A DNA stretch of 64,000 nucleotides, taken from Eucommia ulmoides (lineage: Eukaryota > Streptophyta > Magnoliopsida > Garryales > Eucommiaceae). The notes beneath the pieces were generated by a model. The model was not told the origin of the DNA. It did no database searches and worked only from the letters and a program-made list of their open reading frames with translations. The translations under genes and the position numbers were made by a program. The stretch's first letter is position 1; every line of letters starts with the position of its first letter. The DNA is taken from contig JAENRU010000488.1 in assembly GCA_016647705.1 (NCBI GenBank), forward strand, positions 907,501-971,500. Reading direction: 5' to 3'. Below, piece by piece: positions 10,481 through 54,420 of the stretch.

Positions 10481-10483
10481 TCC

Positions 10484-11000: not shown

Positions 11001-11050
11001 GACGTCCTCCTCTTCAGATCTGATGATTCTAAGTAAAAATTGGTACATAT

Positions 11051-32104: not shown

Positions 32105-33961
32105 GGGTTCTTTACGTAATAAATAGTTAAAAAAAATTACTGAGTATTTTTTAACTTATTTACTAAACATAGACTATCCGGAATTGCGACATTCCGGATA
32201 TCAAAATCCGGTGTTGCGAACATCGAGTTCCAAAAAACATAATTCCATATACCCGGTGTTTACAACACTGGATATATATATATTTATTTTTTTAAAGTCA
32301 TGTACCGGGGATCACATTCCCTGGTCCTTAATCGTTAAAAAAAAATGCGAACCCACTTCACATTTGTTGACAGAACAAATGAAGAAGAAGATGAAGTACC
32401 CACTTCTCTCCCTAGAGAAAACCCTAAAGTTGCGTGAAGTGATTGTCATAAACCAATCCCTATTTCCTCTTTCCTACAGCCGAAAGGCCAAAAGAAATAG
32501 ATCAAATTACATTATTGACCCTTGAACTTTAGCTTTGATTTTAAACTAGTCTCTATATTTTTATTTATGTCAATTGAGTCCCTTCATTGTTTTTTGTATC
32601 AAAGTAGGCCTTATTCCATTTTTTATCTGTTAATTCATACAAATTTTGTCAAAACATTGTCTTTTCACTCAATATTTGCATTAAAATTAAATATTAAAAA
32701 TAAATAAATGAACTTTACTCGTAAGTCAAGGTTTTGAATCCAATAATTATTTACGTTATTTTAGTGGGGATAGAGGTCGATTTTGAGAAAATGGGGTGAT
32801 ATGGAACTCCAGTAGGGGTTGAGAAAATAGGGAAGAGATTAAAATTATATACAAAAATGGGTTTTATTGGTAAACTTTTGAAAGTTGTGGAGCTTAAGTG
32901 AGACAAAATGAAGTAAAAGGAGTTATTTGAAACCAAATATAAAATATAAAACTCCTTCGAGAGTTTTTGTTTTTATTTGTACATCCAAATATAAAATAAT
33001 TATTGCATAAATACATTCGATACCCCAAACTTTCAATTGGTTTCCAATAACTCCTTTTACTTTATTTTATCTCACTTAAGCTCCACAACTTTCAAAAGTT
33101 TACCAATAAAACCCCTTTTTGTGTATAATTTTAATCTATTCCCTATTTTCTCAACCCCTACTAGAGTTCCATATCACCCCATTTTCTCAAACTCGACCTC
33201 TATCCCCACTAAAATAACGTAAATAATTATTTGATTCAAGACCTTGACTTACGAGTAAAGTCCATTTATTTATTTTTAATATTTAATTTAAATGCAAATA
33301 TTGAGTGAAAAAACAATATTTTGACAAAATTTGTATGAATTAACAGATAAAAAATGGCATAAGGCCGACGTTGTTACACGTTAAAAACAATGAAGGGACT
33401 CAATTGACATAAATAAAAACACAGGGACTAGTTTAAAATCAAAGCTAAAGTTCAAGGGTAAATAATGTAATTTGGTCTATCTCTTTTGGCCTTTCTGCTG
33501 CGGAAATATTCAAATACGTTTTTTATTTAAAAAAAAAAAATGCCATTTATTTAATGAGTGAATGGATAATGGTTATGAAAGGATGACGTAAGTCTTAGTA
33601 GGGAATAGGAAATAGGGATTAAGACAATCACTTCACGCAAGGTTCTCTCTCTCTAGTGACTTTTGGGTTTTCTCTATAGAGAGAAGAAGAGCCAGAGTGA
33701 GAAGTGGGTTCATCTTCTTCTTCATTTGTTCTGTCAACAAATGTGAAGTGGTTCCCTTTTTTACTTTTTTTAACGATTAAGAACCCGGGAATCACATCCC
33801 GGTGGTATATTCAGTGTTTGCAACACCAGGTATACGGAATTGTGTTTTTTAGAACTCGGTGTTCACAATACAGAATTTTGATACCCGGGGTTCACATCTC
33901 TAGATAAGTTAAAAAAATACTTGTTTTTAGTAATTTTTTTTAAACTATTTATTACGTAAAG
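32105..33961. mobile_element. Foldback element FB1 (Mutator-like ends)
   Basis: Left end GGGTTCTTTACGTAATAAAT, right end the inverted TTTATTACGTAAAG, with AAATTGAA on both sides (32097-32104 and 33962-33969; the ninth base differs). The two halves are long inverted copies: the sequence read on the minus strand at 32751-32936 and on the plus strand at 33037-33222 encodes the same 61-codon frame with only three changed residues. The arms are about 830 bp around a spacer of about 100 bp. The outer parts carry CCGGAT and CCCGGGAATC motifs shared with FB2 and FB3. No transposase; a poly-A block and about 70 bp near 33525-33600 are extra in the right arm. Confidence 0.88.
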
Positions 33962-33982
33962 AAATTGAACTCCTTAAATAAA

Positions 33983-34203
33983 TGCAAATACGCATGTATG
34001 AATTCCATTACATCACATCTAATGTGGTCTTCATTTGTAACAAAAAAAAAAAAAAAAAAATTGTGGCCCTCACTCCGTCCACTCATCACATGTGATTCGC
34101 AAACACACATGTATGAATTCCATTACATCACATCAAATGTAGTCCTCATTTGTAACCAAAAAAAAATTGTGGTCTTCACTCCGTCCACTCATCACATGTG
34201 ATT
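33983..34203 (+). repeat. Tandem ~115 bp duplication in the BAHD promoter region
   Basis: CATGTATGAATTCCATTACA begins both units (about 33992 and 34109), and both end with CCACTCATCACATGTGATTC. The units differ mainly in the length of an A run (18 against 9). They lie between FB1 and the TATA box, so the BAHD gene has two copies of this upstream block, each with a palindromic CACATGTG (E-box-like). Confidence 0.85.
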
Positions 34204-34247
34204 CTCACTCCGTGAAATCCAAAATTAAACTCGGTCTGGGGAGCTTC

Positions 34248-34254
34248 TATAAAT
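34248..34254 (+). promoter_or_regulatory. TATA box of the BAHD gene
   Basis: TATAAAT, 109 bp before the ATG at 34363, predicting a leader of about 80 nt that ends in an AAT repeat. Confidence 0.7.
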
Positions 34255-34362
34255 TTGGCCCCTTATTTTCATCACATGCCTCAACAGTTCCTACTTCTTT
34301 TCACACATCCATACTTTTAAAAATTTCACATATTGAAATAAAAAAATAATAATAATAATAGA

Positions 34363-36607
34363 ATGTCCAGCCAACTCGTGTTCAGGGTAAAGAGGAGGCC
34401 AGCAGAGCTAGTGCGGCCGACAAAGCCAATGCCTCGAGAATGCAAACTCCTGTCGGACATCGATGACCAAGAGGGGTTTCGCTTTCAAGTCTCAGTAATA
34501 CAGTTCTATCCGAATTCAATGTCGATGATGAGGGACCCCGTGAAGGTCCTTAGAGAGGCATTGGCCGAGACTCTTGTCTTCTACTACCCATTTGCCGGCC
34601 GTCTCAGGGAAAACCCCATCGACCGGAAGCTGATGGTTGACTGCTCCGGTCAGGGAGTTTTGTTCATTGAGGCTGACGCTGACGTTACTCTCCAAGATTT
34701 TGGTGATTCTCTGCGGCCTCCCTTCCCTTGCTTGGAGGAGCTTCTTTACGATGTTCCTGGCTCCTCCGGGGTTCTTAACTGCCCTCTCTTGCTTATTCAG
34801 GTATTCGTTATTCTTACATTTTTCCTTACAATTGAAACATTTCTGGCTTGGATTTTAGTTGCTCCTTCACCAACGCCGCCTACTTACATAACCACACCGT
34901 AAAACTTCAGCTCCGACGAAATTGCCATATCTCTGGCGGATAGAGCCAAGAGGATTGAGAATTTTTACTTGCAAAAAAAATTGATAAAATGAATTTCAAT
35001 TTATGTTTATTTATTTATTAATTAATTTTTAGTTATTTATTTATTATTTTTTCTAAGTGACCCGACCCCTTCCCGGGTTCCGTGAATAGCAGTATCTTTA
35101 TAACTATTTGTTTATTATTTTTTAGTTAATTTTTATTTTAAAAAAAAAAATCCTAAAATAATTTTTTTTTTAAAAAAAAAAAAAAATTGTCAGAAAAAAA
35201 TAAACCATACCGATTTACTAGGGGTGGTTATATATATATATATATAAGTTGTCTATTTGGTCCTACACCAAGTGTTAAAATATAAGCAAAAATGGGGGCA
35301 TTATAGGCACAACGAAATTAAGGGGCCCTTGTGTACAATTACCAACTTTTTTTAAGTTATTAAATTTAGGGAATAAGTCTCAAGATTTAAAAAATCACTT
35401 TCTAAGAACTATTTCATGTGTTAAAAAATCACTGTTATAAGATCCCGTAGAATGATAATTTTATAGAATGAGACTTTTTACCAAATTTCCCAATGGCTCA
35501 TTGGGATGAACAATAGGGTTAGACCGCTACCAGTTCTCTCTCTTTTCTCTTCGTCGCTTCCATCTTCTCTGTGCCTTCCTCATTATCGAAATGTCGAAAC
35601 CCTTCCCTTATTCACGAAACCCTCTCTCTCAGCCTCTGCCATCGCCTCGTCGCTGCCATCGATCCCTGTCTAGCTTGGCTTCACCGTCGATCGCTATCTG
35701 CAGTGCATGACGAACCCTAAGTAAACACGAAACACCATCAATCACAGCCACTGAAGCTTAGATCGAGCCCCCAGCCAAACAGCCACTAGATCTACTATTG
35801 TCAACCCCTCAGCCATTAGATCTGCTACCTGACGTAATTGGTATGTGAAATTGTTTAGATGTTGTTCGTATTTCTCCTCTCTTTTCTTTTCGTAGTCGAT
35901 CTTTGAAACTAGTTTGATTTTTGTTGATTCTTTAGTGATTTTTGTTCATGCCTAATTGCTGTTTAGTTCATGCCCAAGACTTAGGGTCAGGCTTGGGCAT
36001 GAATTTTTTGATTGGGGCCGGGCTTGAGAATGATAATAGGGCCCGAGCATACAGTCAGGCCGTGCTCGGGCCTAACAGTTTCTTGTAATATCCTAGGGTG
36101 AGTCCGGCCCAGCCCGACCCATGACCACCCCTACGATTTACATGTGGAAATACTGATGAAATCACCATGTTTGAAATTCGTAAAGAGACGAATTTTTTAT
36201 TTAGAAGAGAGGGAGAGAGATTGACCACAAATATAGTGAACCAAATCTGAAAAATACTGATAAATATATCGTGCGTGCGTGCATGAGAATTTAAAGAGGG
36301 AAACCCAGAGGAAGTGGGTTGGGGCACGTCAATGAGTAAAGATTTTGACCAGAGTTACACAGAAAAACATGAGAGTTCATCCAATGGCAAAATGGGGTTC
36401 GGTGGGTGTATTTTATGGGAAAAAAAAAAACAGAGATGTTTTTTTTTAATTGAAAGTTGAAAAATGGGTCTAGAAGAAAGGATGATAAAGGTTCGGAGAG
36501 ATTGAATGAACAGTCGTGATGGGAAAAGTGGGGAGAGCATTATGATGGAAGAGGATTTGTTCTAATATGGACCGAGAAAAAAATAATTGGCTTTTGTTAA
36601 TTTTCTT

Positions 36608-36639
<32 letters not shown>

Positions 36640-39301
36640 TTTTTGTAACAAAAAGATTTGTGGAGGTGAGGAAGAAGATTCAAAAGAGCAAATAGTAGTA
36701 AAAAAAAAAATTAAAAATTGGGTAGAAGAACTTGTTTCATGGCAGCTGCCGTCGGAGTTCGTAACTGGAGGCCATGAAGGCCGACGGTGGCTGTAAACTA
36801 TCTTTCTCTATAGGCGACTAGGTTTTTGGATTGAAAGCTCTGATACCATATAAGAAATATTGTAATGGCTTGTATATTATTATAGATTCAAACCTTACTA
36901 CTTATACAAGATGAGTGATGAATTACAAATGAAACACAATATTAAAATATAGAAACAATATAATGAAAAGGAAACAATTTAAATACTAATTAAATAAAGA
37001 AATCATATTAATGGAAATCGGTAGTAGGTGAACTCGATCAGGTGGGTCAACTCGGTGACTTGAGGTATATTCTAACAGTCCGTAAAAGTACGATATGGGA
37101 AACTTTCTTGCCTAATGCTCTGGCAACAGAAAATATTTCTACTAATATGTTTAATAAATATTTTTGCCAATATCTATATAATAAAAAAATCGCAGCCCTT
37201 TTTCACGGTTAAATTAGATTAGATTAAATTATATTTTATACTCTTTTAAATTTTATATTTGTATTTAATTGGTCATTTTTATTATTTATTATCTTTTTAT
37301 ATTTATAAATTAGAAAATTGATGTCTTTAGACACTGTGAATTCTTAGTATATTATAAGTTAGAACAATGTGAATTTCACACATTATTTTTTATCAATAGA
37401 ACGACTAAGAATTATTTAACAAAATGTGAAGTAAATGTCGACTATTTAATTGAAAAGATGTTTTCATTCGTTGAATTATATATTTTGAGAAATTTTAGTT
37501 TTTGTATTCATGAATTTAATTATTTTTGTAGAGCCCACATAATAATATATAATATAGAATAGATAACGGAAGGTAATTAATTAACTATACTTTTTAATTT
37601 ATATTTTTAAATCAGAGAAAATTAATTTTTATTATAATAATATTAAATCATGGCTCTAGTCACAGTAATGACTAGTTTATATAATATATGTGAAATAAAT
37701 CTCAACAATTTAATGGAAAGGTTATTTTTAACCTTTCAATTTATTTAGAGACATTTTAAAATATAGATTTGATATTTTAAAATAATTAATCAATTGTATT
37801 TATATTTTATTTTATTTTTTTTGTTTTACATTACATAAAATTATTTTTTATCAAACTAATTGTTTTTAAGGAAATTTGTTGAGAGTTCTCAAATTTTAAA
37901 AACAACTTTTTAAAACCTAGTCAAAATAATTTCATACCAAAAATTTAAATTTTTGTCATTAAAAGTTAGGTGCATTGTTTTTATTTTTTTTTTAAGATTT
38001 GTAAATAATATTTTATTTGAATGGATAAACTCGTTTTTATTTGACTTTGAAAAAAAAGAGAATATAAAAGAAGTTGGACCCCCCGAAATACACCCATGTG
38101 AAAGGATTTTTCATTAATCCATTTTCCGTCAACCCTTCAGTCAAATACATATTCACGGACCTCCTTGTCGGCCTAATTCAAGTATTTGTCATCAATTCTA
38201 ATCAAATATTTATTTTCCTCTCCTTAGATCCCAAACCTTCTTAAAATATCTAATTCAATGCTAAGTTCAACCTAAAAATAAATAAATAAAAATGATGACG
38301 TTGAAAGTGGACCGTGTAGGCCTTCAATCTTGGACTTGGGTTCCGGAAAAATGTACACACAGGTGGACCTATCGACATTGCACATTCGATATGATAATTA
38401 GTTAAGTTTAAAATATTCTAAAAGTATTTTGACGGAATTTTCTCTACGCATATCTTTACCTGATTGTGATCCTATTGTATTTATAATCGTAAGAAGACTT
38501 GATAAGCAAGTCATTCTTTCAATCTGGGGCTATCTCTCCCCTCTCCCTCCAAACAATCCTCACAGGAATCACGGGGATTGAGTGGTTTTAAGGCCCTCTG
38601 AATGCGTCATCTGGTCTCCTTCCCTTATTTGGTGGGATTTTGGGGGATTTGGGAGTAGGTCTCGAGCAATGGGTCAGGGCCCAAGCTGGGGGTGTATATG
38701 TGCTCCATCTTTGGTAGTCTTGAGGCCGAGCTATCTTATGGGAACCCCGATCTATTTTCGGGTCATCCAAAGTTAGGGTCGAGATTTGGATTCTCACATT
38801 GCCCCTGATCTTGCTTCTTGTACTTCGTGTGGTTGGGTTTTTTAAAAATATCTTCCATCACAAGCCATCGAAGAATATATAAGCAACCTTATTTTAATAA
38901 AATTTAAAAATAACTTTGAGCACCGATTGAATTTTTGTTAGTATCAGAATTAGACGCAGCACGACACTTTTAGATGAACATCTATTTTAACCCTTAAAAA
39001 TCTGATATGCATAGTGTTTCACTCAATATCATCAAAAGAAGAAATTTTACTTGGAATGACAAACATAATCTTATTCGACAAGTATCCATCTGACCCTACC
39101 CATTTTATGTTTGACTTGGTTCGTACAGATAACAATTAAAACCGAATTGATCGGTAACTGAATGAAACGAACTGAGCTGTCCGGTTTTAAAAACCGACTA
39201 AATGGTTTTGGTCGTAGCTTTGGTTTTAAATTTAGCAATCGATGCGGTTTTGGTTTTGGAATTGCAACCGAGTAGCCGAACCACATGGTTGAACCGTGTA
39301 A

Positions 39302-39347
<46 letters not shown>

Positions 39348-40415
39348 CAGTTTAATCCATATTTAATATAAATATATTCTATGTATTTATACTTTTTAAT
39401 ATATTTTACATTTTAGTTATATTTTTGTTCACCATCTCAATTATACCTTTTTTTTTCTTCGTGTCGGAAAATGTGACAGGTGACCCGTCTCAAATGCGGT
39501 GGCTTCATATTTGCTTTACGCCTGAACCACACCACGAGTGATGCCGCTGGACTGGTCCAATTCATGACAGCTTTCGGAGAAATAGCACGGGGAGCATTTG
39601 TCCCCTCCGTAATGCCCGTATGGCAAAGGGAACTACTCAGCGCGAGGGATTCGCCGCACGTGACCTGCACGCACAACGAGTACGAACAAGTGCCGGACAC
39701 CAAGGGGACCATCATCCCACTCGACGAAATGGCACAGCAGTCTTTCTTCTTCGGATCCGACGAAATTGCTAGTCTTCGTCGCTTCATTCCTCCGCACCTG
39801 CTCAACAAGTGCTCCACCTTCGAACTCTTGACAACATGTTTATGGCGGTGTCGCACCATCGCGCTTCAACCGGATGCCGAGGAAGTGATGCGCATGATGT
39901 GCATCGTCAACGCTCGCAGAAAGTTCGACCCTCCTCTCCCTGTCGGATACTACGGCAATGCCTTTGCTTATCCGGCGGCTTTAGCCACGGCTGGATCGAT
40001 ATGTAAGAACCCATTGGCGTATGCATTGGAGCTGGTGATGAAGGCCAAATCTGATGTGACGGAAGAGTACATGAGGTCAGTGGCGGACTTGATGGTGATA
40101 AGAGGACGTCCCCATTTTACGGTGGTGAGGAGTTTTGTTGTGTCGGATTTGACGCGTGCCGGATTTGGAGAGGTGGACTTCGGGTGGGGGAAGCCCGTGT
40201 ACAGTGGACCCGCAAAAGGTTTCGGAGTAATTAGCTTCTTTATACCTTACAAGAACAAGAGAGGTCATAACGGGATACTGGTTCCCGTTTGCTTGCCTGG
40301 CCCTGCCATGGGGAGATTCGTAAAAGAGCTCAACAGCATGTTAAAGGATAATGATGATAATGATCAACCAATCTCCCATTTCAACCACCGCACTTTCATC
40401 ACATCGTCCCTCTGA
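34363..40415 (+). CDS. BAHD acyltransferase, benzyl alcohol O-benzoyltransferase-like
   Basis: Two exons: 34363-34800 (146 codons) and 39480-40415 (311 codons plus stop), giving 457 residues, normal for the family. The donor is CAG|GTATTC and the acceptor GTGACAG|GTGACC; the join reads [12 protein letters not shown] in phase 0, the usual single-intron site of this clade. Motifs: catalytic HxxxD as HTTSD (His163, Asp167) and the structural DFGWG at 379-383. The N-terminus ([26 protein letters not shown]) and [10 protein letters not shown] are those of clade V enzymes that join acyl-CoA, often benzoyl- or acetyl-CoA, to alcohols such as benzyl alcohol in the cytosol to make scent or defence esters. 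After SGPAKG the usual Gly-rich loop is a few residues short (GFGVISFF), and the HxxxD middle residues are TTS rather than the common TMS; both could alter substrate choice. No break is seen, so it is probably functional. The intron (34801-39479) is packed with transposons, and foldback elements lie close on both sides. Confidence 0.93.
35219..36133. mobile_element. hAT-type non-autonomous element in the BAHD intron
   Basis: Ends TAGGGGTGGT and ACCACCCCTA are inverted repeats of the standard hAT pattern, and a perfect 8 bp target duplication CGATTTAC flanks it (35211-35218 and 36134-36141). The 915 bp interior has a CT-rich block and repeated GGGCTTGGGC/GCCCAAGC-type subterminal motifs, but no transposase frame. 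Confidence 0.92.
36142..36836. other. BAHD intron, TRIM interior remnant
   Basis: Poly-T and poly-A tracts, and about 36740-36836 reads like the interior of the TRIM-like element at 17414-19249 next to its primer site (GCCGTCGGAGTTCG here, GCCATCGGAGTTCG at about 18940). No gene. Confidence 0.5.
36837..37077 (-). mobile_element. TRIM/Copia-like LTR with primer site in the BAHD intron
   Basis: On the minus strand the LTR starts TGTTAGAATATACC at 37077, ends near 36849, and is followed at once by TGGTATCAGAGC (36848-36837), a perfect initiator-Met tRNA primer site. It belongs to the same family as 17414-19249 by the shared interior next to the primer site. I found no second LTR, so the element is truncated to its 5' LTR and part of the interior. 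It is antisense to the BAHD gene. Confidence 0.7.
37078..39479. other. BAHD intron, remaining part
   Basis: AT-rich sequence, with a GC-richer unassigned block at 38520-38830, a block of AACCG/CGGTT-type motifs at about 39120-39300, and a TA microsatellite at 39306-39344. It ends at the acceptor AG (39478-39479). No exon beyond exon 2 is recognised. Confidence 0.6.
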
Positions 40416-40523
40416 ATTCTCTCCATCGAAACCTTAACCGACTTGGACAACAAAATGATGCATATTTTTATGTTCGATACATGCTTTTTTTCTTTTGTGC
40501 TAGCTAGCTCTGTGTTAGGTATA

Positions 40524-40834
40524 GAGTTCTTTACGTAATAAATATAAAAAAAAAATAAAAATTTGACAACAGATGTATTTGAACTTATTTACGCAGGCCG
40601 CGTATTTCGGGGTTGGTAATCCCGGGAATTGAGATCCCGGGATTGCCAACCCCGGGATCTTCCATTTTTTTTATTTTTTATTTGGACATATGGTCCCGGG
40701 GTTACCAACCCCGGGACCTTTTGGTCCCAGCTGCACAAGCAGCTGCTAGCTGCTTGTGCAGCTGGTTGAAGCAGCAGCAGCTGCTTGAAGCAGCTGCTGC
40801 TTCAGACGTGCAGCTGCAGCTGCAGCTGCATCTC

Positions 40835-40865
<31 letters not shown>

Positions 40866-42615
40866 TCGTTTTGGCCCACTAAATTTATAAAATTTTCGGC
40901 AATTTTGAGTTGATTAACGGTGATCTATCGATATTTTAAATAAATTTAATTTTTTGTGCATAAATTAAATTGAAAACACTCCATAATGCTTTTTACAACA
41001 CTAAAAACGGACATGTGGATGAATTTTAAAAAATCGTCAAAGTTGGCCAGATGAGCTATTTCGATAACGGCAGAATTTTTTTCGGCAATTTAGAATTAAT
41101 AAAAGATTGCATTATTCATAACAGAAATGAACTAAATTTTTTGTATATAAATTATGTTCATAACACTACATAACAAAATTTAGAACACTAAAAACGGACT
41201 AGTGAATAATTTTTAAATAATCGTCAAAATTGGTCAGATGAGTTGTTTCGATGACGATGTAATTTTTTTTGAAAACTTAATTAACAAAAATGGTCGTCTA
41301 TCCGTAACAGAAATAAATCTGATTTTTTTGTATACAAACCATGTTCATAAGAGCGATTATTTAAAAATGATTTACTAATTCGTTTTTGGTGTTCACAATT
41401 TAAAAACACTATATTACACTTGAAAGTTTGGATGAACATAATTTTGCACTCGGAGGTCCGTTGAGGGCGATTTTTTTTTTAAAGTTGGATATGATCTGAG
41501 TCATTACTCTGGATTTTGAAGATTTCAATTTTACCAATAGGACAAGATGCACGCTCTCAACGAAGATTACAAATTTAGTCACCTAACACTTGAAATTGAA
41601 AATTGAAGGTGAAAACGGACTTTATTTGAAAAAATAGTGGACTTCCGGCAGTTTACGGCGCTTAGATCTCAAAAAAATACCCAAAATCAAAAAAAAAATC
41701 GCCCCAAACGGATCACTGAGCGCAAAATTATGTCTATCCAAACTTTTTCTATTATTTTACGTAAATTTTATTTTCTCTCGATAACATATTATCCGTTTTT
41801 GGTGTTTTCGATTTTATTATTTAGCGTTATGAACGTAGTTTGTATGCAAAAAAATCAGATTTATTTCTGTTACGGATAGACGACCATTTTTGTTAATTAA
41901 GTTTTCAAAAAAAATTGCATCGTCATCGAAACAACTCATCTGACCAATTTTGACGATTATTTAAAAATTATTCACTAGTCCGTTTTTAGTGTTCTAAGTT
42001 TTGTTATGTAGTGTTATGAACATAATTTATATACAAAAAATTTAGTTCATTTCTGTTATGAATAATGCAATCTTTTATTAATTCTAAATTGCCGAAAAAA
42101 ATTCTGCCGTTATCGAAATAGCTCATCTGGCCAACTTTGACGATTTTTTAAAATTCATCCACATGTCCGTTTTTAGTGTTGTAAAAAGCATTATGGAGTG
42201 ATTTCAATTTAATTTATGCACAAAAAAATTAAATTTATTTAAAATATCGATAGATCACCGTTAATCAACTCAAAGTTACCGAAAATTTTATAAATTTAGT
42301 GGGCCAAAACGAAATTTTTTTTTTTTTTTTTTTTTTTAAGGAGCTGCAGCTGCAGCTCCACATGCAGCTGCTGCTGCAGCTGCACGTCTGAAGCAGCAGC
42401 TGCTGCTTCAACCAGCTGCACAAGCAGCTAGCAGCTGCTTGTGCAGCTGGGACCAAAAGGTCCCGGGGTTGGTAACCCGGGATCTTAGTTCCCGGGATTA
42501 CTAATCCCGAAATACGCGGCCTGCGTAAACCCCGAAATACGCGGCCTGCGTAAATAAGTTCAAATACATCTGTTGTCAGATTTTTTTTTTTTTATATTTA
42601 TTACGTAAAGAACTC
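40524..42615. mobile_element. Foldback element FB2 (Mutator-like ends), just after the BAHD gene
   Basis: Left end GAGTTCTTTACGTAATAAA, right end its exact inverse, inside a perfect 10 bp target duplication GTTAGGTATA (40514-40523 and 42616-42625). The whole 2092 bp is a giant hairpin: arms of about 950 bp (to about 41480 and from about 41695) around a loop of about 214 bp. Subterminal parts hold CCCGGGATC/GATCCCGGG palindromes and a dense CAGCTG/AGCTGC cluster (40728-40834, mirrored at 42343-42450). The 8-11 bp duplication fits the Mutator superfamily. It begins 108 bp after the BAHD stop, so it sits in or just past the 3' UTR, and its end contains AATAAA. Confidence 0.93.
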
Positions 42616-42971
42616 GTTAGGTATATGCCTACTTGTGTTGTGGCAGCGGCCTTGCTCTTTAATTATATATACTATTTCTTGTTGTATCAACAACTGCAAA
42701 AAAACATTAATCAAAGTTGAACGTAGTGAAAAGGGGGAGTTCTCTACGTAATAAATATTATTTAATTTTTTTTTTACTAAAACAACTAGTATCTAAACTT
42801 ATTTACAACATGCGAGCATCTCGGCCTTCGGAACGCCGGGATCAGAAAAAAAAAATATTTTTTTATTTTATTTTATTTTTTTTTTTTATCCCAGCCTTGA
42901 CACAAGGCCGGGATCAAAAAACAAATATTTTTTTTTTAATTTTTTTGATCCTGGCTTTGTCAAGGCCGGGA

Positions 42972-43060
42972 TCCATATATATATACTAGGGTATAACCCG
43001 TGCCTGAAGGCACGGGCGCAAAAAAAAATCAACGTAAGATATACTCATTTGTTTATAAAA
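42972..43060 (+). mobile_element. Helitron-like 5' end (candidate)
   Basis: Right after the FB3 terminal repeat, TCCATATATATATACTAGGG leads to a perfect 8 bp stem CCCGTGCC-TGAA-GGCACGGG at 42997-43016 followed by A-rich sequence. A TC start with ACCCGTGC...GCACGGG is common at 5' ends of plant Helitron-like elements. A related but left-truncated copy (CTGAAGGCACGGGTG) is at 46018-46032. The 3' end (CTRR with hairpin) was not identified. Confidence 0.35.
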
Positions 43061-46000
43061 TATTCTCTGCATGTTTTATTTAAAATCAACAATAATTAAT
43101 AATTATATACCATGATTCAATAATTTATATATTCTTCTAATAAAATGATAAACAATTATGGTAAAAAAATATGTACTGTCAATCTATATCAAATTACTGT
43201 TTTATTTTTTTTTATTTTTTTGTACAATTGGTACATAAATAACAACTGAACATCAATAATTAGTTATACAACAAAATTAACCAACAATCGGGTCCACGAC
43301 ACAAAAAAAAAAATCAATGTAAACAAAAAAAACACACTTCTGTTTTTACAGAATTATACACCTGTTTTATTAAAAATCAACAATAATTAATAATTAAATA
43401 CCAATATCCAAACAATAACCCAAATATTCGGTTAATAAAATAATATAACAATTAATGCAAAAACTTGTACTGCCAATGCAAAACTCATTACTATTTTTTT
43501 TAGAGAATGAATTTTTTTGTACAATTGGTACATAAATAACAATTGAATATAAATAATCAATTGTACAATAATAATAACAAACAATCGAGTCCTACATTTG
43601 TTTACTTTTGGCCATGAATTAAAGATAACAATGAAAAATTAAAATCGATTATAAATAAGCAATACTCTATCACAACACACAGTGCAACTGAAAATTACCA
43701 ACATTGCTTCGAGAATTAAGTGAAACTGTCGTGGACACGTAATATAATCGTCAAATAATTGAGAACAATAAAAAATATAAATTTACATTAATGACGGAAT
43801 CATGGTGCATAAAATTGATTCAAACATGTTCAACCAATAAAAACTATAAAAATAGTTTGATAACCAAAATATTCATACACATTCGGAAGAACATTCTTTT
43901 TTCCCTTCTCTTTTCCTTTGCAATTTGCATTTTTATTTTGCGGGGCCATTTGTTTATCCTTAAAAGAACAAACCGTAGAATCGCAAATATAAGGGGCACA
44001 TTTCATTTTAAACCTTCTACTTGAGCTTAACATGTTAACCCCATTTCCTAGGTTTGTCATTTTCAACAACTAATTCAATTCTAAAATTATTACCCAAGGA
44101 CGATCAACCCAAACCGTTTCCTCCAAGTCGTTACTTAGTTGCAAGAAAGTATGAAAAGAATTATCAAAGTTAGCAGTTCTGTAAGCAATGAACTTAAATA
44201 TTCACATGCGTTGATTACCTGAAAAAATAAAACGCAAGAAATAATAAGATCATAACGTCGGAAGATGTGTCTATTATATGGAAAAAAAAAAAATCCAAGT
44301 ATAATTAGCATATATAAATAAATAATTTATAGTTGATGTTCAACTATTACTTATATCGTATGAGGTTGGGGCTAAACATCAACCAGGCTTACGGTTTTGC
44401 ACGGGGTGCATGTCCTAAAGAATCAAGCAAGGGTTCAAAACTAAAACAAAGATATGTTGTTATTTTTTTTTATAACATTTCATTAGTGTTCATTCGATAA
44501 AAAAATATTTATTGTCGATAAAAAATATATGACAATCAGTTTATTAGGATCCATTTTTGTCATTAATGTTAACATTGTTTGTTTATTTCTACTGAATGCA
44601 TAATTTTAGAAGAGCTGTTTATGAAAAACCCAAGCAGCCTCATTGAAATTAATTATTTTATTTGTCGATTTACAATAAGATGCAAGTCAACGTTAAAAAA
44701 ATTGAATCTGTAATGATGTTTGTTGGATCATCATTCACAAAGATAAACGAAAAATCACTGGATATAAAAACAGTGGATATCAATATACTTTTGTTTGTTT
44801 GAAAATTTAAGATCTAAAAGTGGAGGTAACAATTTGAAAAATAAACAAATATAGATTTTTTTATTTAAACATTTTAAACTATAATTCAAGCTTTCCAATT
44901 GAGGGGATGAAGATCATATTAACCATATTTTAGAAGTAAATACTGCATTTTTTTTTTTAAAAGTTTTTGCTTTAAAAAAAAAAAGGGTGTAGATTAATTT
45001 TAAATTCAGATACTCACCTGATAGAGGCCGTTACAACATAGTGTATGAAATTACTTGCAGCCTTTTTTTAATTAGTTGAGTACCTTCTTCAACACTGCAA
45101 TGTAACATCACACACTAAAGAAAGTAAATATAACTTTGATATTGGACTTTTATAGATCCCAAGCCAATTAACCAAGCAAGATTTGGGGCAACAATGTAAC
45201 CGACCAAGATATGACAGCTGTTTTATTAAACAACATTTTTAAGTTTCAAACACATTCACCAACTATTGAAGGACTAACCAAAGAAAAAAAAAAAAAAACT
45301 TTAGGAACATAAAAAACATAGAAGTAGACATTTACCTATTGATGTCGATTGAAACGGAACTCAGAGATGTCAGTTGAAACGAAACTCAATTTGGAATCTC
45401 AGCCAAGACAATGGTCAGATGGAGCAACGATGGACAATTACCTGTGAAGGGGCATGGCGATGGCGATGGCGACGGCGACGGCGCAATGATGTTCTAGCAA
45501 TAAAAAAAATGGTTTGAGGCGACACCAATGACAACAGTGTCAGTATCCAAAAAATATATAGCATGCATATTAAACATGAACAATAATTAGCATTTAAATA
45601 TAATCATCAACAAACAATATATATTTATACACACTGTAAACCCAAAAAATATATATCTATACACAATAAATATAATCATCAACCCCACAGCTAATTTTTG
45701 TTAATCAGTGGTATACCATACCAGTGGCAGATGCGGGCGAGTCCTTAGCGACGGCGACAGGGCGGAAAAACGGTGAAGATTTGGGAAGCGAGAGGGAGAG
45801 AGTGAAACCCAATTTGAGGAGCACAGGTTTGAGCGAGAGAGAGCGTGAGTGAACCCAAGTGAAGAGCACAGGTCTGAGAGAGAGAGAGAGAGCGCGTGAG
45901 TGAACCCAATTCGATCTCAGCCCTTGAATCAAAAGTGATCTAAAGGCCAAAAATGTCTCTTATGGATGGTGTAATCTCAACCCTTAGATATGAGATCTAA

Positions 46001-48110
46001 AGGCCAAAAATCACTCTCTGAAGGCACGGGTGAAAAAAAAAATTGAATCTCTCGTTTATACAACAATATAAACTTAATAATAAATTGCAACCCATGGAAT
46101 CTAATCGAAATTACGATAAAATTCACAAAATATTAAATTGCAACACATGGAAAAGAAATGGCATCAAATCCATCTGATCACACCATAATACAAATGCAAA
46201 TGACATCCTGAAAAGAACTTTCCAAATTTCAAACAATAATCTTCATACGTGCTGATGCAGATGAAACAACATTCCAAAAAAAATAATTTATTCTTCCAAT
46301 CAAGAAATTACATTGGGAACAATCGTATTATGTTCCTAGAACTTTGATCTATAGAGTATGGGAGCATAAAATATATCATACAACACATTGCAGCAATGAT
46401 CCCTAAAATTATGGTTAGTTATAAAAGAGTTTGTTCACAGATTTCATTAGTTTCCAAAAGAAACGCAAAAAACTTTGTTCCCTTAAAATTAGTTCCCATA
46501 ATGGACTTGGTTCCCAAAAAAACAATTTGTTCCCAACTTTGGTTTAATTATGGACTAAAAGCAAGAGAAAATGGTAATGTAACTAAAGAACTTTGGAAAA
46601 AAATCAACCTCATAAATAAGTGTGTCCAAATTCTAAGGTATTTTCAACAGTCATTGAGTTCTCAACATAGGTGCTCTGCACAAAAAAAAATATGGAAAAA
46701 AATATGTAAAACACCTAAAGGTAGACTATTAACGAAAAACACTAATTGCACAAACTAATGTAAATTTGATTAATAACCTGACTATAATTTTAGACAATAA
46801 TCAATGAATAGAATTTAAAAAAAAAAAGAAGCCTTAATCCTAATTGAGAGGGAGTGGGAGTCTATGAAGTAAGAGAGAAGAAGGCTTATTTTAGTGGCTC
46901 ATATAGATGCAAAACTGGGACATCATTCCATGAATGATTTATTGAGAGTCCCAAATTCACTAATGTTGAATCAAAACTCAACTGGGCATGAATCGATTGA
47001 TGAATCAAATGAGAATATTGTAAGCAAATGCAATTGAATTCATAGACAAAAAACACTAATTAAACTGAATCGAAGAAAAACCCTAAATTTAATTGAATTC
47101 ATAAACACAATTAACAGTTGAAACCTACGATCTAAACTGTAGAAAAATAATTCACACTCTGAACAAATTTGAGAAGAGAGGAAGAAAGAGAGATAACCTG
47201 GATTGAAGTGGCTTGCAAAGACTCCAAGTTTTTTGAGAATAGAAACACTAAACAAACACCATATAAGTAAACACTAAAAAAAAAGGCCAAAAAAAATAAC
47301 AGGGAAGTAGACCATCAAAGAAGTGAGAAGACAGAAATTAGGGTTGAGGTCACTGAAATTAGGGTTGAGGTTCAACATACCTAAAATTTCGGAGAAATAG
47401 AAAGAGAATTTGCTAAAATCGGAGCTACCTGTTCGAGCATTAACAAAAATATTAGCTGAAATTCGATCCGTCTAAACAAAACAAATAGTAAACAGACAAC
47501 AACAATTGATCTTCTTAAGTAAAAAGTAAACAAACGGTGGAAACGATGAAAAGGTTGGAGGAGAAGCTCACCTTTAAATAGAAAATGGTCGGATCTATCA
47601 AAATAAAAGAGGGTAAGAGATGAGCCCTGACCGTCTTTTGCCACCAACCCGTGGGCACTCACCGCCTCCACCCCGAGCTTGATATTGTTCATCATCTGTA
47701 CAAAAATAAAAAAAGAAAATCAACTTAAGAACTAAAAATTTGGAGGCAAAATGGAAGAATTCGGTTATGTTTATTTTCTTTGTTGCTCCCAGAGTTTTAC
47801 AACAAATATCTGGGAATAAATTACAATTTTTTGTTTATGATCCAGTGTTTGGTGATAGGGAATTAAAGGCTTGGAATCGGAATTGGGAATTAATGCAGGT
47901 AAACTTTTCAATTGCAATTCGGAAATTGAGTTTCCAATTCATATTAAACCAAATGCTACCCGAGTGGTTTTTGGAGGAACAAAAACAGAAATTCAAGAGC
48001 AAAAACATCACAAAAAAAAAAAAGAAAAAAAAAACTGAAAGTTTCTATTCCAGTTTCCTGTTTCTATTCCCAATTCTCTAAAAATGAATGTGGGAGGTCA
48101 AAATCTGAAG

Positions 48111-48141
<31 letters not shown>

Positions 48142-49729
48142 CCAAAAAAAATATATATATATCCTCGCCAAAATTGAAACAAATCTCGATTTTTTGAAAC
48201 CATACCTTTACATTCAGCCTTGGAAACGGTAGTTGTGGTTGGGGTTGTAGCAGTATCTATGAATATTCAAGCCGGAGTGTTAATTCAACAACAAAACCAA
48301 GAAAACACATAAATATTTCAGTTGAAACAACTAAGGAAAAAACCTGAAAAAATAATAAAAACAAATCAAGCAATTCAATCCAATCAAGTTAGCAAAAACC
48401 TAATCAATCAAGGGAATAAGAGAGGGGATAGAGAGCAAATGTTTTTTTACTTGAAAAAATAGTGAGAATCAGTAACAGTTTATATGGAACCCAAAATATT
48501 TGGACGATGAACATGAAGAAGACTATGACGATGAAGGAACACTACCTATCACAAAAATTGTGGGTTATTGGATGTATCATCCCCTTTACTGGAAACTGAA
48601 TCTGTATTCGTTCAATCAATGGCATCCGATTGCAATGTAAGTTCACAAACATATCTATCACGAACTCTTTTTCTTTGTCAACGACAATACATACCTTGAG
48701 TGAAACCGTTTTAGAAAATCTATAAATCACACCCAAAGAATAGAACAAATTTCCAGATTTGGGCACATAAATTATTGAAAAACAGGACATAAACAATGAG
48801 AGAGAGATAACGGATGCTTACAGTGATCCCTTGCAAATTCTAAGTCTCTGAGTAGGAAATAAGTCTAAGCAAGATTGTCTTACACCTTGACATATTTGAA
48901 TACATCAAATGAAGTTAACAGGTTTAAATATTAAACAAACAAATTATAAATTTCAAAAAAAAAAAAATTAATGCAGTGTCGGTTGCCATCGGTTGTCGAT
49001 CACACTACGTCAAACAATTCAAGAGTTCAAAATAAAGTGCACAACAACATCAAAAACAATTTAAGAGTTCAAATTATACATAATATACAACATAAATCAT
49101 ATTAACCAAAATTAACAATTTTACATTTTAAAACAATTATATAAATTAAAACTAATAAACAAAACCCTAAATAGTAAACATATTAATTGAATCCCATACA
49201 CAAATACATAAATTCAAAATCTATCCACTCAAAACAAATTCAAAGAGGTCAATACCTGTTTCGCGGAGGATTTGAGAAGTTTTTCTGCCAAAAAAAGAAG
49301 AAGATCAAGTTAATATCACACCCCCAAGAAGTTTTGGTATTAATTTTGGCCATATATGGTCAATTGGGACCAAATCAAGAACATAAATAGAAAATCCTAT
49401 ATTCTTGACTTTAATAGACACAACCAATAGAGTTCATCGAACAAAAACATATTTCATAGAACAGGGGAAAATCTGTGCACTAATAAATAATGACTTTTAA
49501 TAGACACAACCAATAGAGTTCTTATTACTTTAATAATTTCTATACCTGAAGGGTAAAAAAAATGTTGTTCTCAAAACAAAAACAGTAAATGGACAACGAA
49601 AATGAAAACAGAAATCTGAGGAAAGAAAAACAGTAATTGAACGCCACCTTATCGATCAATATACATAATTATTAAAATGCATATAGATTAAAAAATTGAA
49701 GATTATAAAGATTACAGTTTTATTCATAC
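43061..49729. other. FB3 interior, AT-rich with scattered exon-like blocks
   Basis: No intact gene. Short minus-strand blocks have plausible splice borders, for example 47660-47700 (MMNNIKLGVEA between an acceptor and donor) and 48190-48240 (TTPTTTTVSKAECK before a donor), but I cannot name their sources. A GC-richer block with GCGATGGCGATGGCGA lies near 45465. The phrase GATATGAGATCTAAAGGCC (about 45986) recurs in similar form near 51648 and 55065, suggesting shared ends of one repeat family. Confidence 0.45.
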
Positions 49730-49820
49730 CATATACATCAAGAGGAGCATCATAGCCATAGCTAGAGGCGATAAAAGGACCTCTTGCAGTCTTGCCAAAA
49801 GTAGTTCCACCATGGTACAA
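49730..49820 (-). pseudogene. Isolated exon of a GH35 beta-galactosidase
   Basis: On the minus strand, 30 codons read [10 protein letters not shown], then [10 protein letters not shown] and [10 protein letters not shown], ending at a proper donor (ATG|GTATGAA). This is the highly conserved plant beta-galactosidase block (from memory MYHGGTNFGRT.GGPFIATSYDYDAPLDEYG), including the usual exon edge after DEY. The normal initial Met of the block is Leu here and the expected acceptor before it is not clear. No other GH35 exon was found nearby. It is a captured or decayed gene piece within FB3. Confidence 0.8.
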
Positions 49821-51751
49821 TTAAATTAATTAAATCTAATTTTCAGTATTTTTGTTTCCTTGGAGAAAAAAAAAAGGAAATAATTATTTTACCATTTAAC
49901 AGTTAAAGAAAAAGCCAGTGAACGGGTGCTCCAAATTCAGTAAACATGCCCAATATCATTTTTAATCTTATAATGAGCCAAAAATAAATAAATAAAAAAT
50001 CTATATGCCCAAATAAAGTGAAAAAAAAAAAAAAAAAAAAAGTGAAGAATTTGCACCTGCAAGTGAAAAGACACAATCACAGGAAAAAAAAAGAGTCAAA
50101 TAAACAGTTGAAATTATTGGGTTCCAGACCAATTTTGATCGAGTATTAAAATAAAAATTAAGATTTAATTATAGGGTGTCAAATGTATTTTAGAGTGAAC
50201 AAATATTAAATGTAGGGAATGGAAAAACAACGTTAGTTTTTCACAGGTTAAACATTTTTTCAAATCATTCTCTTCCACAAAAAAACTATATTGGGTTTCC
50301 AATAAGTCCCTTAATATTTCGATTTTCTCAATTTAGTCCATAATCTTTTGAATTCAGTTAATATAGTTCATAGTCAGATCAGAAAAACTTTTTTTTTTTC
50401 ACTGTTAAAAAGAAAAGAAAAGGTTGATTCACCTTTCCCTTAAATCACTGAATTAAGCCACCTATTAAATTCACCATTATAAGCCTTACCTTTAATTTTC
50501 ATCCCCATTTCCTGTGACTTGCAGTGGACTCATCTGATGAGTCCCTCATCTACTTCCCTCTATGGACACCTCCCATGCTCTACTCTTTCAGTCTCTGTTC
50601 TTCGACAACACAAACACACAAATATGTGTCAAAATTGATACTTACACACACAAACATTAACTGAATTCTACAATTCAGAATTGATATTTACACACACAAG
50701 CACACATCAAGAAGCAATTTTCATTTGTTGATTTTACAGAAAGAAGAAGAGATCAAATATGATGAAACACGAAAAAAAAAAAAAAAAACATTAAACATTC
50801 AATAATGAATTGATGCACACACACTAAGCAATTCTACAAAAGTACACAATACAACATTAGCAGCTAAAATCGATCTCTACATCCTGTAAATTGAAAGAAG
50901 AGAGTGAGAAGTTTGAACCAACCGCCGGCCACAGCCATCCAGATCTGGCCATCGGCAGCCATCGCCATCGCGATCCAGCCAATCAACGACGATGGCTATT
51001 GCGCTGGAAGTGGCAAGTCCGATGGCGTTGGTGAGGGCGGCGACGACAGCGATGGGAGAACACAATCAAACGAAAGCAAGAAAAATGAAGCCCTAAGAGA
51101 TAAAGAAATGTCACCGTAAAAACTTGCCGAGGTTGGGAGGAGAAAAAGTGGACGTGTTCAAGAAGCTGGAGATGCTATCGTTGTCACAAGGGAGAGGGAG
51201 AGAGAAATTGATTCGTCCAAATTCGTCGATCAACATGTACCTCAACTCTCCCATCTAGATCCGACCGCCACCGACCATCGCCACCTAGATCCGACCGTGG
51301 CAAGATCAAGAACAGCGAGATCGGCACGTTGCGAGATCTGTAGCAGCAAGTCGGGTGAGAGAGAGAGAGAGAGAGAGCAATGACGGTGAGCGACGGCGAT
51401 GGCAGTAGTGGATGAACGGCGAGATCACGTTCACGAGACGGCTAGGCGAGGCAATGGTGTAGGGCTTGGGAATGGAGAGGAAGAGGGCAGAGAAGTGAGA
51501 GAGCAAACGATAGAGAGAGAGAATGAAGAAAGTGTGAGAGCAGTGAAATGAGAGTGTTTCAAAATTATATTTGGCATCTACCGTTGGATAAAAAGCAATC
51601 CTAAGGTCAGAAATGTCTCCCATCAATAGTGCAATCTAGACCCTTGGATATGAGATCCAAGGGTCTAAAATACTTCCCTCCAAAAAATATCTTTAGCACT
51701 GTAGCACATATTTTCAAATAAGGATCTAATTTATATTATAGATATATTTTT
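49821..51751. other. FB3 interior, no gene recognised
   Basis: AT-rich, with a GC-rich block at 50915-51060 and AG-rich tract at 51357-51378. Only short frames without recognisable domains. Confidence 0.5.
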
Positions 51752-53247
51752 AAATGAAACAATTATTCATTACACAGCCCACATAGAGAGAGTGGAGAGA
51801 GAGCGGAGGAGAAAGAGAGGCACAAATTCAACAATTTTTTTTGACACTTTTTACCCTTGAAATTTCAATTTTATTAATAAATGATTTTTTATATTTTTTT
51901 TTTACACTTTATTAATAAAAAATTTTAACTCTTGCAAATGATTTTTCACACTTTATTTTTATTTTATTATTTATTCAATTCAACTGATAAAGAATTTTGA
52001 CGGAAATATATACTTTATTATTTATTATATCATGAAAATTCTTTTTACCAAATTAAATTTTTAGTCGACCGAATGGGATATCCTGTCAATTAAATTCAAT
52101 TTGGTCAATAAAAAATTGAATTTGGTCGACCGAATGGGATATTCTGCTGACCAAATTTAATTTGGTCGATCAAATTCTATTTTTGATAGACCGAATGGGA
52201 CATCCCGCCAACCAATATAATTTTGAAGGACCAAATTCAATTCAAGTAATAAAGATTTTTCATGAAAATATTTACTTTATTATTTATTATATTATGAATT
52301 TTTTTTTTTACTAAATTGAATTTTTGGTCGACCGAATTGAATATTTGGTCGACAAGATGTTCCATTCGATCGACCAAAAATTCAATTTGGTAGACCAAAT
52401 AGAATTTGGTCGACAGGATGTCCTATCTTGTGGACTAAAAATTCAATTTGGTCGACAGAATGCCCCCATTCGGTTGACTAAAAATTCAATTCAGTTGACC
52501 AAAAATTGAATTCAGTAGACCAAATAGAATTTGATCAACAGGGTGTCCCATCCTGTCAACCAAAAATTCAATTCGATCGACAGGAGGCTCCATTCGGTCG
52601 ACCAAAAATTCAATTCGATCGATAGGATGCCCTATTCGGTCTACCAAAAATTCAATTTGGTAAAAAGAATTTTCATGATATAATAAATAATAAAGTAAAT
52701 ATTTTCATGAAAAATCTTTATTACTTGAATTGAATTTGGTCCTTCAAAATTATATTGGTTGATAGAATGTCACATTCGGTCTACTAAAAATAGAATTTGG
52801 TCTACAGGATGTCCTATTCGGTCAACCAAATTCAATTTTTGGTTGACCAAATTGAATTTAGTCGACATGATGCCCCATTCGGTTGATTAAAAATTTAATT
52901 GGGTAAAAAGAATTTTACGATATAATAAATAATAAAATATATATTTCCATCAAAAAAATTTATTAGTTGAATTGAATAAATAATAAAATAAAAATAAAGT
53001 GTGAAAAATCATTTTCAAGAGTCAAAAAAAAATTATTAATAAAGTGTAAAAACAAAATATAAAAAAAATAAAAAAATTATTAATAACATTGAAATTTCAG
53101 GGGTAAAAAGTGTCAAAAAATTGTTGAATTTGTGCCTCCCTCTTTCTCCACTCTCTATGTGTGGACTGTGTAATGAACAATTGTTTCAATTTAAATCTCT
53201 TTCTCCGCTCTCTCTGTGGCCAGTGTAATGAACAATTGTTTCATTTT

Positions 53248-53252
<5 letters not shown>
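51752..53252. mobile_element. Nested palindromic (foldback) element within FB3
   Basis: The left outer sequence (AAATGAAACAATTATTCATT at 51753, then CACATAGAGAGAGTGGAG) is found inverted on the right at about 53145-53252, and inner blocks such as TTATTTATTCAATTCAACTA and the TTTTACCAAATT blocks are likewise mirrored about a centre near 52490. Arms are roughly 700 bp. The right tip repeats its last ~50 bp twice (53166-53208 and 53209-53252). The middle is filled with repeats of GGTCGACC/AATTCAATTTGGTCGAC type. No coding content. Confidence 0.75.
52060..52900. repeat. GGTCGAC-CATTCGGTCGACC repeat cluster
   Basis: About twenty imperfect copies, in both directions, of AATTCAATTTGGTCGAC followed by AGGATGTCCCATTCGGTCGACC. 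Each unit is itself near-palindromic (GGTCGACC; GGGAT/ATCCC), so this section can form many small cruciforms inside the larger one. Confidence 0.75.
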
Positions 53253-53295
<43 letters not shown>

Positions 53296-53498
53296 ATCCC
53301 GGCCTCTGATCCCGGCATTGTGAACGCCGGGATCATTAAAACAAAAAAAAAAAAAATTCTGAAATGAACCCGGTGTTCTGAACACCGGGATCTAGTTCCG
53401 GCATTCCAAAGGCCGGGATGTTCGCATCTTGTAAATAAGTTCAGATACTAATTGATTCATTAATTTTTTTTAAATAATATTTACTTCGTAAAGAACTC

Positions 53499-54198: not shown

Positions 54199-54420
54199 GA
54201 GTTCTTTACCTTCTTAGAATTAAAAAAAAAAAAAAAAAAATTGACAAATTCCCTCACAGGGTCAATTTGAACTTATTTTCGAAACTAGAACCGGTAGTAT
54301 CTCGGCTGGATTAAAAAACAAAATTTATTTTTTTAATGTAAATTACAAACCGGCCCTCAAAGGGCCGGTTTGTATCATCAAAAACGCAGGGACCTGCTTT
54401 TTGCAGGCCCTATGCACCTA
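54199..54420 (+). mobile_element. Terminal fragment of the FB family
   Basis: GAGTTCTTTACCTTCTTAGA at 54199, then an A run, TTGAACTTATTTTCG at about 54266, then two hairpins: ACAAACCGGCCCT-CAA-AGGGCCGGTTTGT (54344-54372, perfect 13 bp stem) and CCTGC-TTTTT-GCAGG (54393-54407). The order (end motif, A run, AACTTATTT, GC-rich palindromes) is that of FB1-FB3. No matching right end was found, so it appears truncated or is a half element. Confidence 0.5.

What the first reader, a model, noticed from the sequence alone, without database searches (positions are those of the whole stretch)
32105..53498. A family of giant-hairpin elements with shared Mutator-like ends clusters around one gene
FB1 (1.86 kb), FB2 (2.09 kb) and FB3 (10.8 kb) share the end GAGTTCTTTACGTAATAAA, an A run, AACTTATTTAC about 70 bp in, and GC-rich CCCGGGATC palindromes, yet their inner arms are unrelated to each other. 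FB2 has a perfect 10 bp target duplication. Shared tips with different long palindromic bodies suggest that transposition repeatedly builds or captures inverted arms. That is unlike ordinary MITEs, which are copies of one body. All three, plus a fourth fragment at 54199, lie within 22 kb. I do not recognise this family.
Basis: partly seen in the sequence, partly recalled or inferred. Interest (0 to 1): 0.8.

Follow-up and report, generated by a model that had tools for sequence, protein, structure and literature searches.

The report
Hairpin transposons of one Mutator family
These are ordinary jumping pieces of plant DNA, cut-down hairpin-shaped members of one Mutator-type transposon family whose full-size, enzyme-coding members sit in the same genome; the three neighbours look different mainly because they belong to different sub-families and one of them was later interrupted by another transposon.

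Summary
FB1, FB2 and FB3 share tips, the AACTTATTTAC motif and GC-rich mini-hairpins. FB3 is not a 10.8-kb palindrome: it is a 2.0-kb hairpin split by an 8.76-kb Helitron. A collinear copy of the locus on another contig lacks the Helitron and also lacks FB2, with FB2's 10-bp target present once.

The ends are Mutator ends: 8.5-9.1 kb elements with the same tips and perfect 10-bp duplications carry a MURA-type transposase and a plant mobile domain. But bodies are not made anew at each insertion: FB2 and FB3 are copies of multi-copy hairpin sub-families, FB1 has rearranged relatives, and a further 1.5-kb hairpin sub-family exists. All 14 short tip pairs read are hairpins, from only two bodies.

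A modest residue remains. Within FB3-type elements the two arms resemble each other more than arms of different elements do (11 of 11), and two loci with a duplicate copy show almost no conversion in place, so arms may be equalised around transposition. Shared ends with unrelated interiors, foldback MULEs and similar left/right ends are all published Mutator features. New member of a known kind.

The parts
32105..33966 (.). FB1: hairpin MULE, 1.86 kb; tip GGGTTCTTTACGTAATAAA left, eroded tip right
   Evidence: relatives in genome
32477..33500 (.). FB1 inner palindrome (89% self-complementary, ~100-bp loop)
34363..34800 (+). exon 1 of BAHD (BEBT-like) acyltransferase gene flanked by FB1 and FB2 (context)
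39480..40415 (+). exon 2 of the same gene (context)
40514..40523 (+). FB2 target-site duplication, left copy GTTAGGTATA
40524..42615 (.). FB2: hairpin MULE, 2.09 kb, copy of a high-copy sub-family
   Evidence: empty site in C8 copy
40524..41492 (+). FB2 left arm
41677..42615 (-). FB2 right arm
40608..40830 (.). FB2 left run of GC-rich mini-hairpins
42616..42625 (+). FB2 target-site duplication, right copy
42737..42985 (.). FB3 left part (tip, mini-hairpins, start of arm) up to the Helitron
42986..51742 (-). Helitron nested in the left arm of FB3: 5' TCTATAATATAAATTAG, 3' hairpin plus CTAG, inserted between A and T
   Evidence: absent from the C8 copy
51743..53498 (.). FB3 remainder (rest of left arm, centre, right arm, right tip)
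   Evidence: multicopy body
54199..54374 (+). F4: lone degenerate family end with AACTTATTTTC and a 14-bp-stem mini-hairpin

Best explanation
FB1, FB2 and FB3 are non-autonomous foldback members of one Mutator-like (MULE) family of this plant. Shown: the same tips with 10-bp target duplications bound 8.5-9.1 kb elements that carry a MURA-type transposase; FB2- and FB3-type bodies are multi-copy; the short elements read are full-length hairpins; the C8 copy of the locus has no FB2 and no Helitron, so most simply FB2 inserted after the two copies parted and the Helitron later split FB3. Inferred: the transposase acts in trans on the ~100-200 bp shared end; each hairpin sub-family was founded once, by putting an inverted duplication of unrelated DNA inside the shared ends, and then spread as a unit.
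For: Tip: 167 exact genome copies against 0 for the reversed control. Of 6 long pairs fetched, 6 have perfect 10-bp duplications and they are 90-96% alike in their longest shared pieces. L026 has a 735-aa open frame with DBD_Tnp_Mut and MULE domains, a SWIM frame and two plant-mobile-domain frames; L031 has the same two transposase domains in two broken frames; L028, L029 and L030 hold transposase matches; L027 was not among the matches listed there and not scanned. FB2 ends match the six at 71-88% over 200-244 bp. Of 14 short pairs, 14 are hairpins (half-to-half 0.87-0.97), 9 with the FB2 body and 5 with a second body; duplications: 8 perfect at 10 bp or more (one in a C run), 1 perfect at 9 bp, 3 with one mismatch in ten, 2 none. 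FB3-type: 10 of 11 places with both tips 1.8-2.3 kb apart. C8 copy: single target at the FB2 site, no Helitron.
Against: No transposition assay. FB3 matched only 1 of the 6 autonomous elements above the 8% coverage shown (69% over 196 bp) and FB1 none, so their helper may be another lineage; a second MURA lineage (85-86% protein identity) exists, one element of which has variant tips and a 10-bp duplication. No source locus for any arm was found, so founding by acquisition is unproven. FB1's relatives are partial and rearranged. Absence of FB2 from C8 could also be precise loss there.
Confidence: 0.93

Rival explanations
1. Arms are equalised again and again around transposition: one arm serves as template for the other (gap repair or hairpin intermediate), so that every new insertion starts as a near-perfect palindrome. 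This is the surviving form of the first reader's idea.
For: FB3 sub-family: within-element arm divergence 0.105 against 0.175 between elements, 11 of 11 elements lower, permutation p 0.0002, and same-arm equals opposite-arm distance between elements; 8 of 11 have left and right outer thirds as sisters. FB2 sub-family: clear in the outer third (0.052 against 0.092, p 0.0024, 9 of 10 elements). Autonomous ends: p 0.007 and 0.011 in the outer two thirds, n=6. At the FB3 locus, ancestral left/right differences are kept in 10 of 10 windows since the split from the C8 copy (71 of 797 sites, 0 of the opposite pattern), so conversion in place was not seen.
Against: In FB2-type elements the inner third keeps fixed left/right differences (0.190 within, 0.194 opposite-arm, 0.057 same-arm between), so that core was inherited and not rebuilt. 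Sisterhood in trees is weak outside FB3 outer thirds: FB3 middle 5 of 11, inner 1 of 11; FB2 1, 1 and 0 of 10; 1.5-kb type 2 and 1 of 5; autonomous 1 of 6. The 1.5-kb sub-family shows the signal in only one third (p 0.013; others 0.13 and 0.61, n=5). The p values are not corrected for the many parts tested. Only two loci could test conversion in place (FB3; FB1 outer 180 bp: 34 ancestral, 1 conversion-like, 1 cross). Left and right ends more alike within an element is called a general feature of maize Mu elements (PMC3276141, passages).
Confidence: 0.3
2. Each insertion independently captured or built its own arms.
For: The three bodies in the window are mutually unrelated beyond the end zones.
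Against: FB2 and FB3 bodies are multi-copy.
Confidence: 0.02
3. The hairpins are inverted duplications of one end of autonomous elements of several lineages, so the 'unrelated' arms are the subterminal DNA of lineages not read here.
For: FB2-type elements share 200-244 bp with the autonomous ends; at least two MURA lineages exist.
Against: The six autonomous elements read share little beyond the ends with FB2, the 1.5-kb body and FB3, and nothing above threshold with FB1. The fetched ends of one lineage-2 element share only end-zone and simple-sequence matches with the hairpins (longest 137 bp, 71%, with FB3). The neighbouring single-arm copy was a separate old relative.
Confidence: 0.2
4. Assembly artefact palindromes.
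For: None found.
Against: Half-to-half identities 0.89-0.93 in the window; FB1 and FB3 are also present in the C8 copy with the same flanks.
Confidence: 0.01

Closest known systems
Maize Mu elements and MULEs in general (PMC3276141, passages)
   Same: conserved ends, unrelated internal sequences, 9-bp duplications, left and right ends of one element more alike
   Different: here the internal sequences are themselves full-length inverted arms; duplication is 10 bp
MuTAnT of Medicago truncatula (PMC4486113, passages)
   Same: multi-copy foldback MULE made of long inverted repeats, an autonomous mudrA-type partner, often near genes
   Different: about 200 bp to 1.6 kb, (TA)n targets, 9-bp duplication
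FARE of Arabidopsis (paper not held; content recalled, and cited in PMC4486113 and PMC3169594)
   Same: foldback element of about 1 kb made entirely of modular long inverted repeats, with a larger MULE-transposase-coding form
   Different: ends there are one conserved repeat (recalled); here at least three, with FB1 four, unrelated hairpin bodies carry one end type
Tm1 of root-knot nematodes (PMC3169594, abstract, section 9 and passages)
   Same: Mutator-superfamily foldback with composite ends and different interiors
   Different: animal Phantom-type transposase; tandem 14-bp motifs in place of GC-rich mini-hairpins
Pack-MULEs and MULEs with extended or multiple TIRs (PMC3310237, abstract, Discussion and references)
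   Same: acquired sequence can become part of extended TIRs, stated there
   Different: no host source of the arms was found here
PMD-coding MULEs (PMC5418596, passages)
   Same: plant mobile domain carried by MULEs
   Different: there PMD-transposase fusions are named; here the PMD lies in frames apart from the transposase frame, and whether they are spliced together is unknown

Membership tests
Mutator-like elements (MULE) | MURA-type transposase in an element with the same ends | tested here: met
   L026: DBD_Tnp_Mut 6.3e-11, MULE 2e-16, SWIM 3.7e-07; transposase seen in 5 of the 6 long elements read, L027 not tested; ends and duplications
Mutator-like elements (MULE) | 8-11 bp target duplication | tested here: met
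   10 bp: 6 of 6 long pairs, 8 of 14 short pairs perfect (one in a C run); empty site
Mutator-like elements (MULE) | mobilised by that transposase | not testable with these tools
   inferred from shared ends only
Foldback MULE (FARE/MuTAnT type) | element made mostly of long inverted arms | tested here: met
   14 of 14 short pairs and FB1-FB3, half-to-half identity 0.87-0.97 with gaps set aside
FARE or MuTAnT themselves | sequence identity to that family | not tested
   no plant repeat library on hand; tip string not found in the paper library
MITE-like behaviour (copies of one body) | same body at many sites | tested here: met
   FB2 and FB3 types; FB1 only partly
Pack-MULE | arms derived from a host gene | tested here: inconclusive
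   no Pfam match reaching its cut-off in 6 of the 36 arm frames of at least 50 aa; no single-copy source recognised, with only 40 candidates scored per search
Helitron (the insert in FB3) | 3' hairpin plus CTRR end, TC start, A/T target, no duplication | tested here: met
   empty site
Helitron (the insert in FB3) | Rep/helicase protein | tested here: inconclusive
   4 of 30 frames of at least 60 aa scanned, none reached a cut-off; probably non-autonomous

The most novel reading that the evidence does not exclude
In this MULE family, transposition itself makes and keeps full-length palindromes: around each round the two arms are re-equalised, from the cut ends inward, by copying one arm onto the other, and rare errors in this process graft unrelated DNA as new arms onto the shared ends, founding new hairpin sub-families.
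Probability: 0.2. Interest if true: 0.6.

Novelty: new member of a known kind. Interest (0 to 1): 0.3.

Why it matters
It removes a candidate for a new transposition mode and replaces it with a well-anchored MULE family that has transposase-coding partners, several hairpin sub-families and a natural empty site. If the arm-equalisation signal holds in a larger sample, the family would be a convenient case for asking how foldback transposons keep their palindromes and how MULEs acquire sequence into long inverted repeats, a mechanism that PMC3310237 (Discussion read) calls not yet understood.

Tried and rejected
Tip string in viral contigs: 3 exact matches, all in the same flanking sequence (G+C 47-50%) and without the inner motif, taken as chance. 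Tip plus AACTTATTTAC in prokaryote contigs: none. Tip string in papers: none; shorter strings gave 9 papers, by title none on plant transposons. Coding content: no Pfam match reaching its cut-off in 10 frames, 6 from arms and 4 from the Helitron. Idea that the second tier of FB2-arm matches was the arm's source: the two fetched are FB2-type hairpins with variant left tips. Idea that the 1.5-kb arm comes from an autonomous end: the tested place was a separate old relative beside a lineage-2 element. My first test for conversion in place looked only at one site pattern and would have missed erased differences; redone by windows.

Rows dropped: L063 had only one tip and was left out of the FB3 arm tests. 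FB1-type loci L070-L075 and FB2-type L077 and L078 were not used in arm tests. One search used only columns with at most 20% gaps. BLAST tables were cut at stated thresholds (8% coverage, 60 bits, 120 bits). The pairing of the 100 listed of 167 tip places into 14 short and 20 long pairs was by eye; 32 listed places had no exact partner within 11 kb; 6 of the 20 long pairs were read.
Full report
What was checked. AACTTATTTAC occurs five times exactly, starting 48-59 bp inside those ends, against 0.09 expected; the sixth end has a diverged form. CCGGGATC occurs ten times, all in the end zones of FB2 and FB3. A scan for GC-rich short hairpins found 42 in the window, 14 of them in the 3% of bases that make up the end zones, whose limits I drew; the one such zone that I folded folds far better than shuffles (z -6.4). 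The long hairpins are real: FB1, FB2 and FB3 halves align at 0.93, 0.93 and 0.89 identity, with 304, 150 and 250 gap columns set aside, too diverged for a mirror artefact of assembly.

FB3 is composite. On the minus strand, 42986-51742 has the marks of a Helitron: TC start, a hairpin just before a CTAG end, and insertion between A and T. Removing it leaves 2005 bp, so all three elements are 1.86-2.09 kb. Beyond the first 100 bp the bodies align no better than shuffled sequence, apart from a marginal score between FB2 and FB3 (47 against a shuffle maximum of 44), which share about 200 bp of end zone at 69%.

A natural control. Within the 30 kb of contig C8 that I fetched, 46536001-46559151 is a collinear copy, 88-96% identical per main aligned block, of window 31406-58621. 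The two exons of the BAHD gene are 96.6% and 97.3% identical, intron and flank 92-93%. Whether this is an allele, a homeologue or a segmental copy was not determined. The C8 copy has FB1 (shortened inside) and FB3, and the F4 stretch aligns. It lacks FB2 and shows GTTAGGTATA once at that point, and it lacks the Helitron. Most simply, FB2 is an insertion with a 10-bp duplication made after the two copies parted, and the Helitron a later insertion into FB3.

The family in the genome. The tip has 81 forward and 86 reverse exact copies in 946.7 Mb, none for the reversed control. Among the 100 places listed, inverted pairs fall into 14 of 1.1-2.1 kb and 20 of 5.0-10.8 kb (paired by eye). All 14 short ones and 6 of the 20 long ones were read. 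The 6 long ones are 8.5-9.1 kb, 90-96% alike in their longest shared pieces, and 6 of 6 have perfect 10-bp duplications. L026 carries a 735-aa open frame with DBD_Tnp_Mut and MULE domains, a further frame with a SWIM domain and a zinc-knuckle-like stretch (the knuckle read by eye), and two frames with the plant mobile domain; L031 has the transposase domains in two broken frames. A protein search scored 61 of 5788 first-look candidates: 55 places at 87-100% identity, 6 of these 55 without stops, and 6 places at 85-86%, all 6 without stops, that form a second lineage. Matches lie inside L026, L028, L029 and L030; L027 and L031 are not in that list. One second-lineage element has variant tips and ATTATATGAG on both sides. 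Plant mobile domains in MULEs are known (PMC5418596, passages).

The bodies are copied. Of 14 short pairs, 9 carry the FB2 body (87-94% to FB2 and 80-96% to each other in the best piece) and 5 share a second body of about 1.5 kb. The FB2 left arm has 40 places at 94-100%, the window's own included, and one at 87%, with 40 of 2000 candidates scored. FB3's body gave 181 matching stretches with 40 of 457 candidates scored. Of 11 such places fetched, 10 have both tips at 1.8-2.3 kb; of these, 4 have a perfect 10-bp duplication, 2 one mismatch, 1 two mismatches, 2 match over 11 bp if shifted by one base, and 1 has none. These ten match FB3 at 74-81% in the best piece and over 85-100% of their length. 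FB1 has its C8 counterpart at 96% and a set of partial, rearranged relatives (129 matching stretches, 40 of 216 candidates scored, many of them end zones only); of 6 such places fetched, 1 is a tip pair (1441 bp, one mismatch in ten in its duplication), 1 has one tip and 4 have none within four mismatches.

What remains unusual. Several hairpin bodies, unrelated to each other and, beyond the ends, to the six autonomous elements read, carry one type of end. Shared ends with unrelated interiors is a typical MULE feature (PMC3276141, passages), acquired sequence can become part of extended TIRs (PMC3310237, Discussion), and foldback MULEs are known (PMC4486113; PMC3169594; FARE recalled). So each ingredient has a precedent.

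A further result. If a hairpin sub-family descends from one founder palindrome, left and right arms of one element should differ at least as much as the same arm of two elements. In 11 FB3-type elements the reverse holds: 0.105 within against 0.173 same-arm and 0.175 opposite-arm between, 11 of 11 elements, permutation p 0.0002 (floor of 5000); with one of two close relatives removed it stands (10 of 10). In 10 FB2-type elements it is clear in the outer third (0.052 against 0.092; p 0.0024; 9 of 10), slight in the middle (0.025 against 0.028; p 0.029) and slight in the inner third against opposite arms (0.190 against 0.194; p 0.0052), where fixed left/right differences remain (same-arm 0.057). 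In 6 autonomous elements the outer two parts show it (p 0.007 and 0.011), the innermost does not (p 0.39). In 5 elements of the 1.5-kb type it is seen in one of three parts (p 0.13, 0.013, 0.61). These p values are not corrected for the number of parts tested. Trees give left and right ends as sisters in 8 of 11 FB3-type elements for the outer third, 5 of 11 for the middle and 1 of 11 for the inner third, but in at most 1 of 10 FB2-type, 2 of 5 of the 1.5-kb type and 1 of 6 autonomous elements. FB3 itself, compared with its C8 copy, keeps ancestral left/right differences in 10 of 10 windows (71 sites of 797), with no site of the opposite pattern, so no arm-to-arm conversion is visible since the split; the outer 180 bp of FB1 give 34 ancestral sites, 1 conversion-like and 1 cross. 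Equalisation around transposition is the reading I favour for this residue, at modest probability; old conversion in place is not excluded. Higher left/right identity within an element is described for maize Mu elements, so the signal itself may not be new.

Verdict. A new set of members of a known kind: foldback sub-families of a MULE family with transposase-coding partners. The position around the BAHD gene fits the known preference of MULEs for gene flanks (general knowledge); no test of clustering or of distance to genes across the genome was made.

Noticed in passing
window 42986-51742: The Helitron looks composite: a second 3'-end-like motif at 46023 and a repeat of its 5' subterminal part at 45921-46011 against 51581-51671, 76%.
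   Followed up: partly
window about 57702-59101: Tandem satellite-like array with a period near 48-49 bp judged from match offsets (no tandem-repeat program run), also present in the C8 copy.
   Followed up: no
window 12507-15855: Minus-strand frames that look like LINE remains (reverse transcriptase domain matches in two of them).
   Followed up: no
window 1560-2276: Open frame with a cupin (germin-like) domain.
   Followed up: no
C8 copy, L056-L058, reverse coordinates about 9727-16976: About 7.2 kb of extra DNA inside the intron of the BAHD gene copy, absent from the window.
   Followed up: no
C2:2604705-2617055 (ends in L076 and L079) and five further places: Second MURA lineage: stop-free matches in 6 of 6 places at 85-86% identity; one 12.35-kb element with variant tips and a 10-bp duplication. 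Fewer stops than in the first lineage (6 of 55 stop-free) suggests it is younger.
   Followed up: partly
L079 about 946-1671: Old single-arm relative of the 1.5-kb hairpin with its own GC-rich mini-hairpins and a right tip with 3 mismatches, next to the lineage-2 element.
   Followed up: partly
C8 copy of FB1: FB1 in the C8 copy lacks about 615 bp of the left arm and part of the centre (window 32284-32897), as expected of a deletion that breaks a hairpin.
   Followed up: partly
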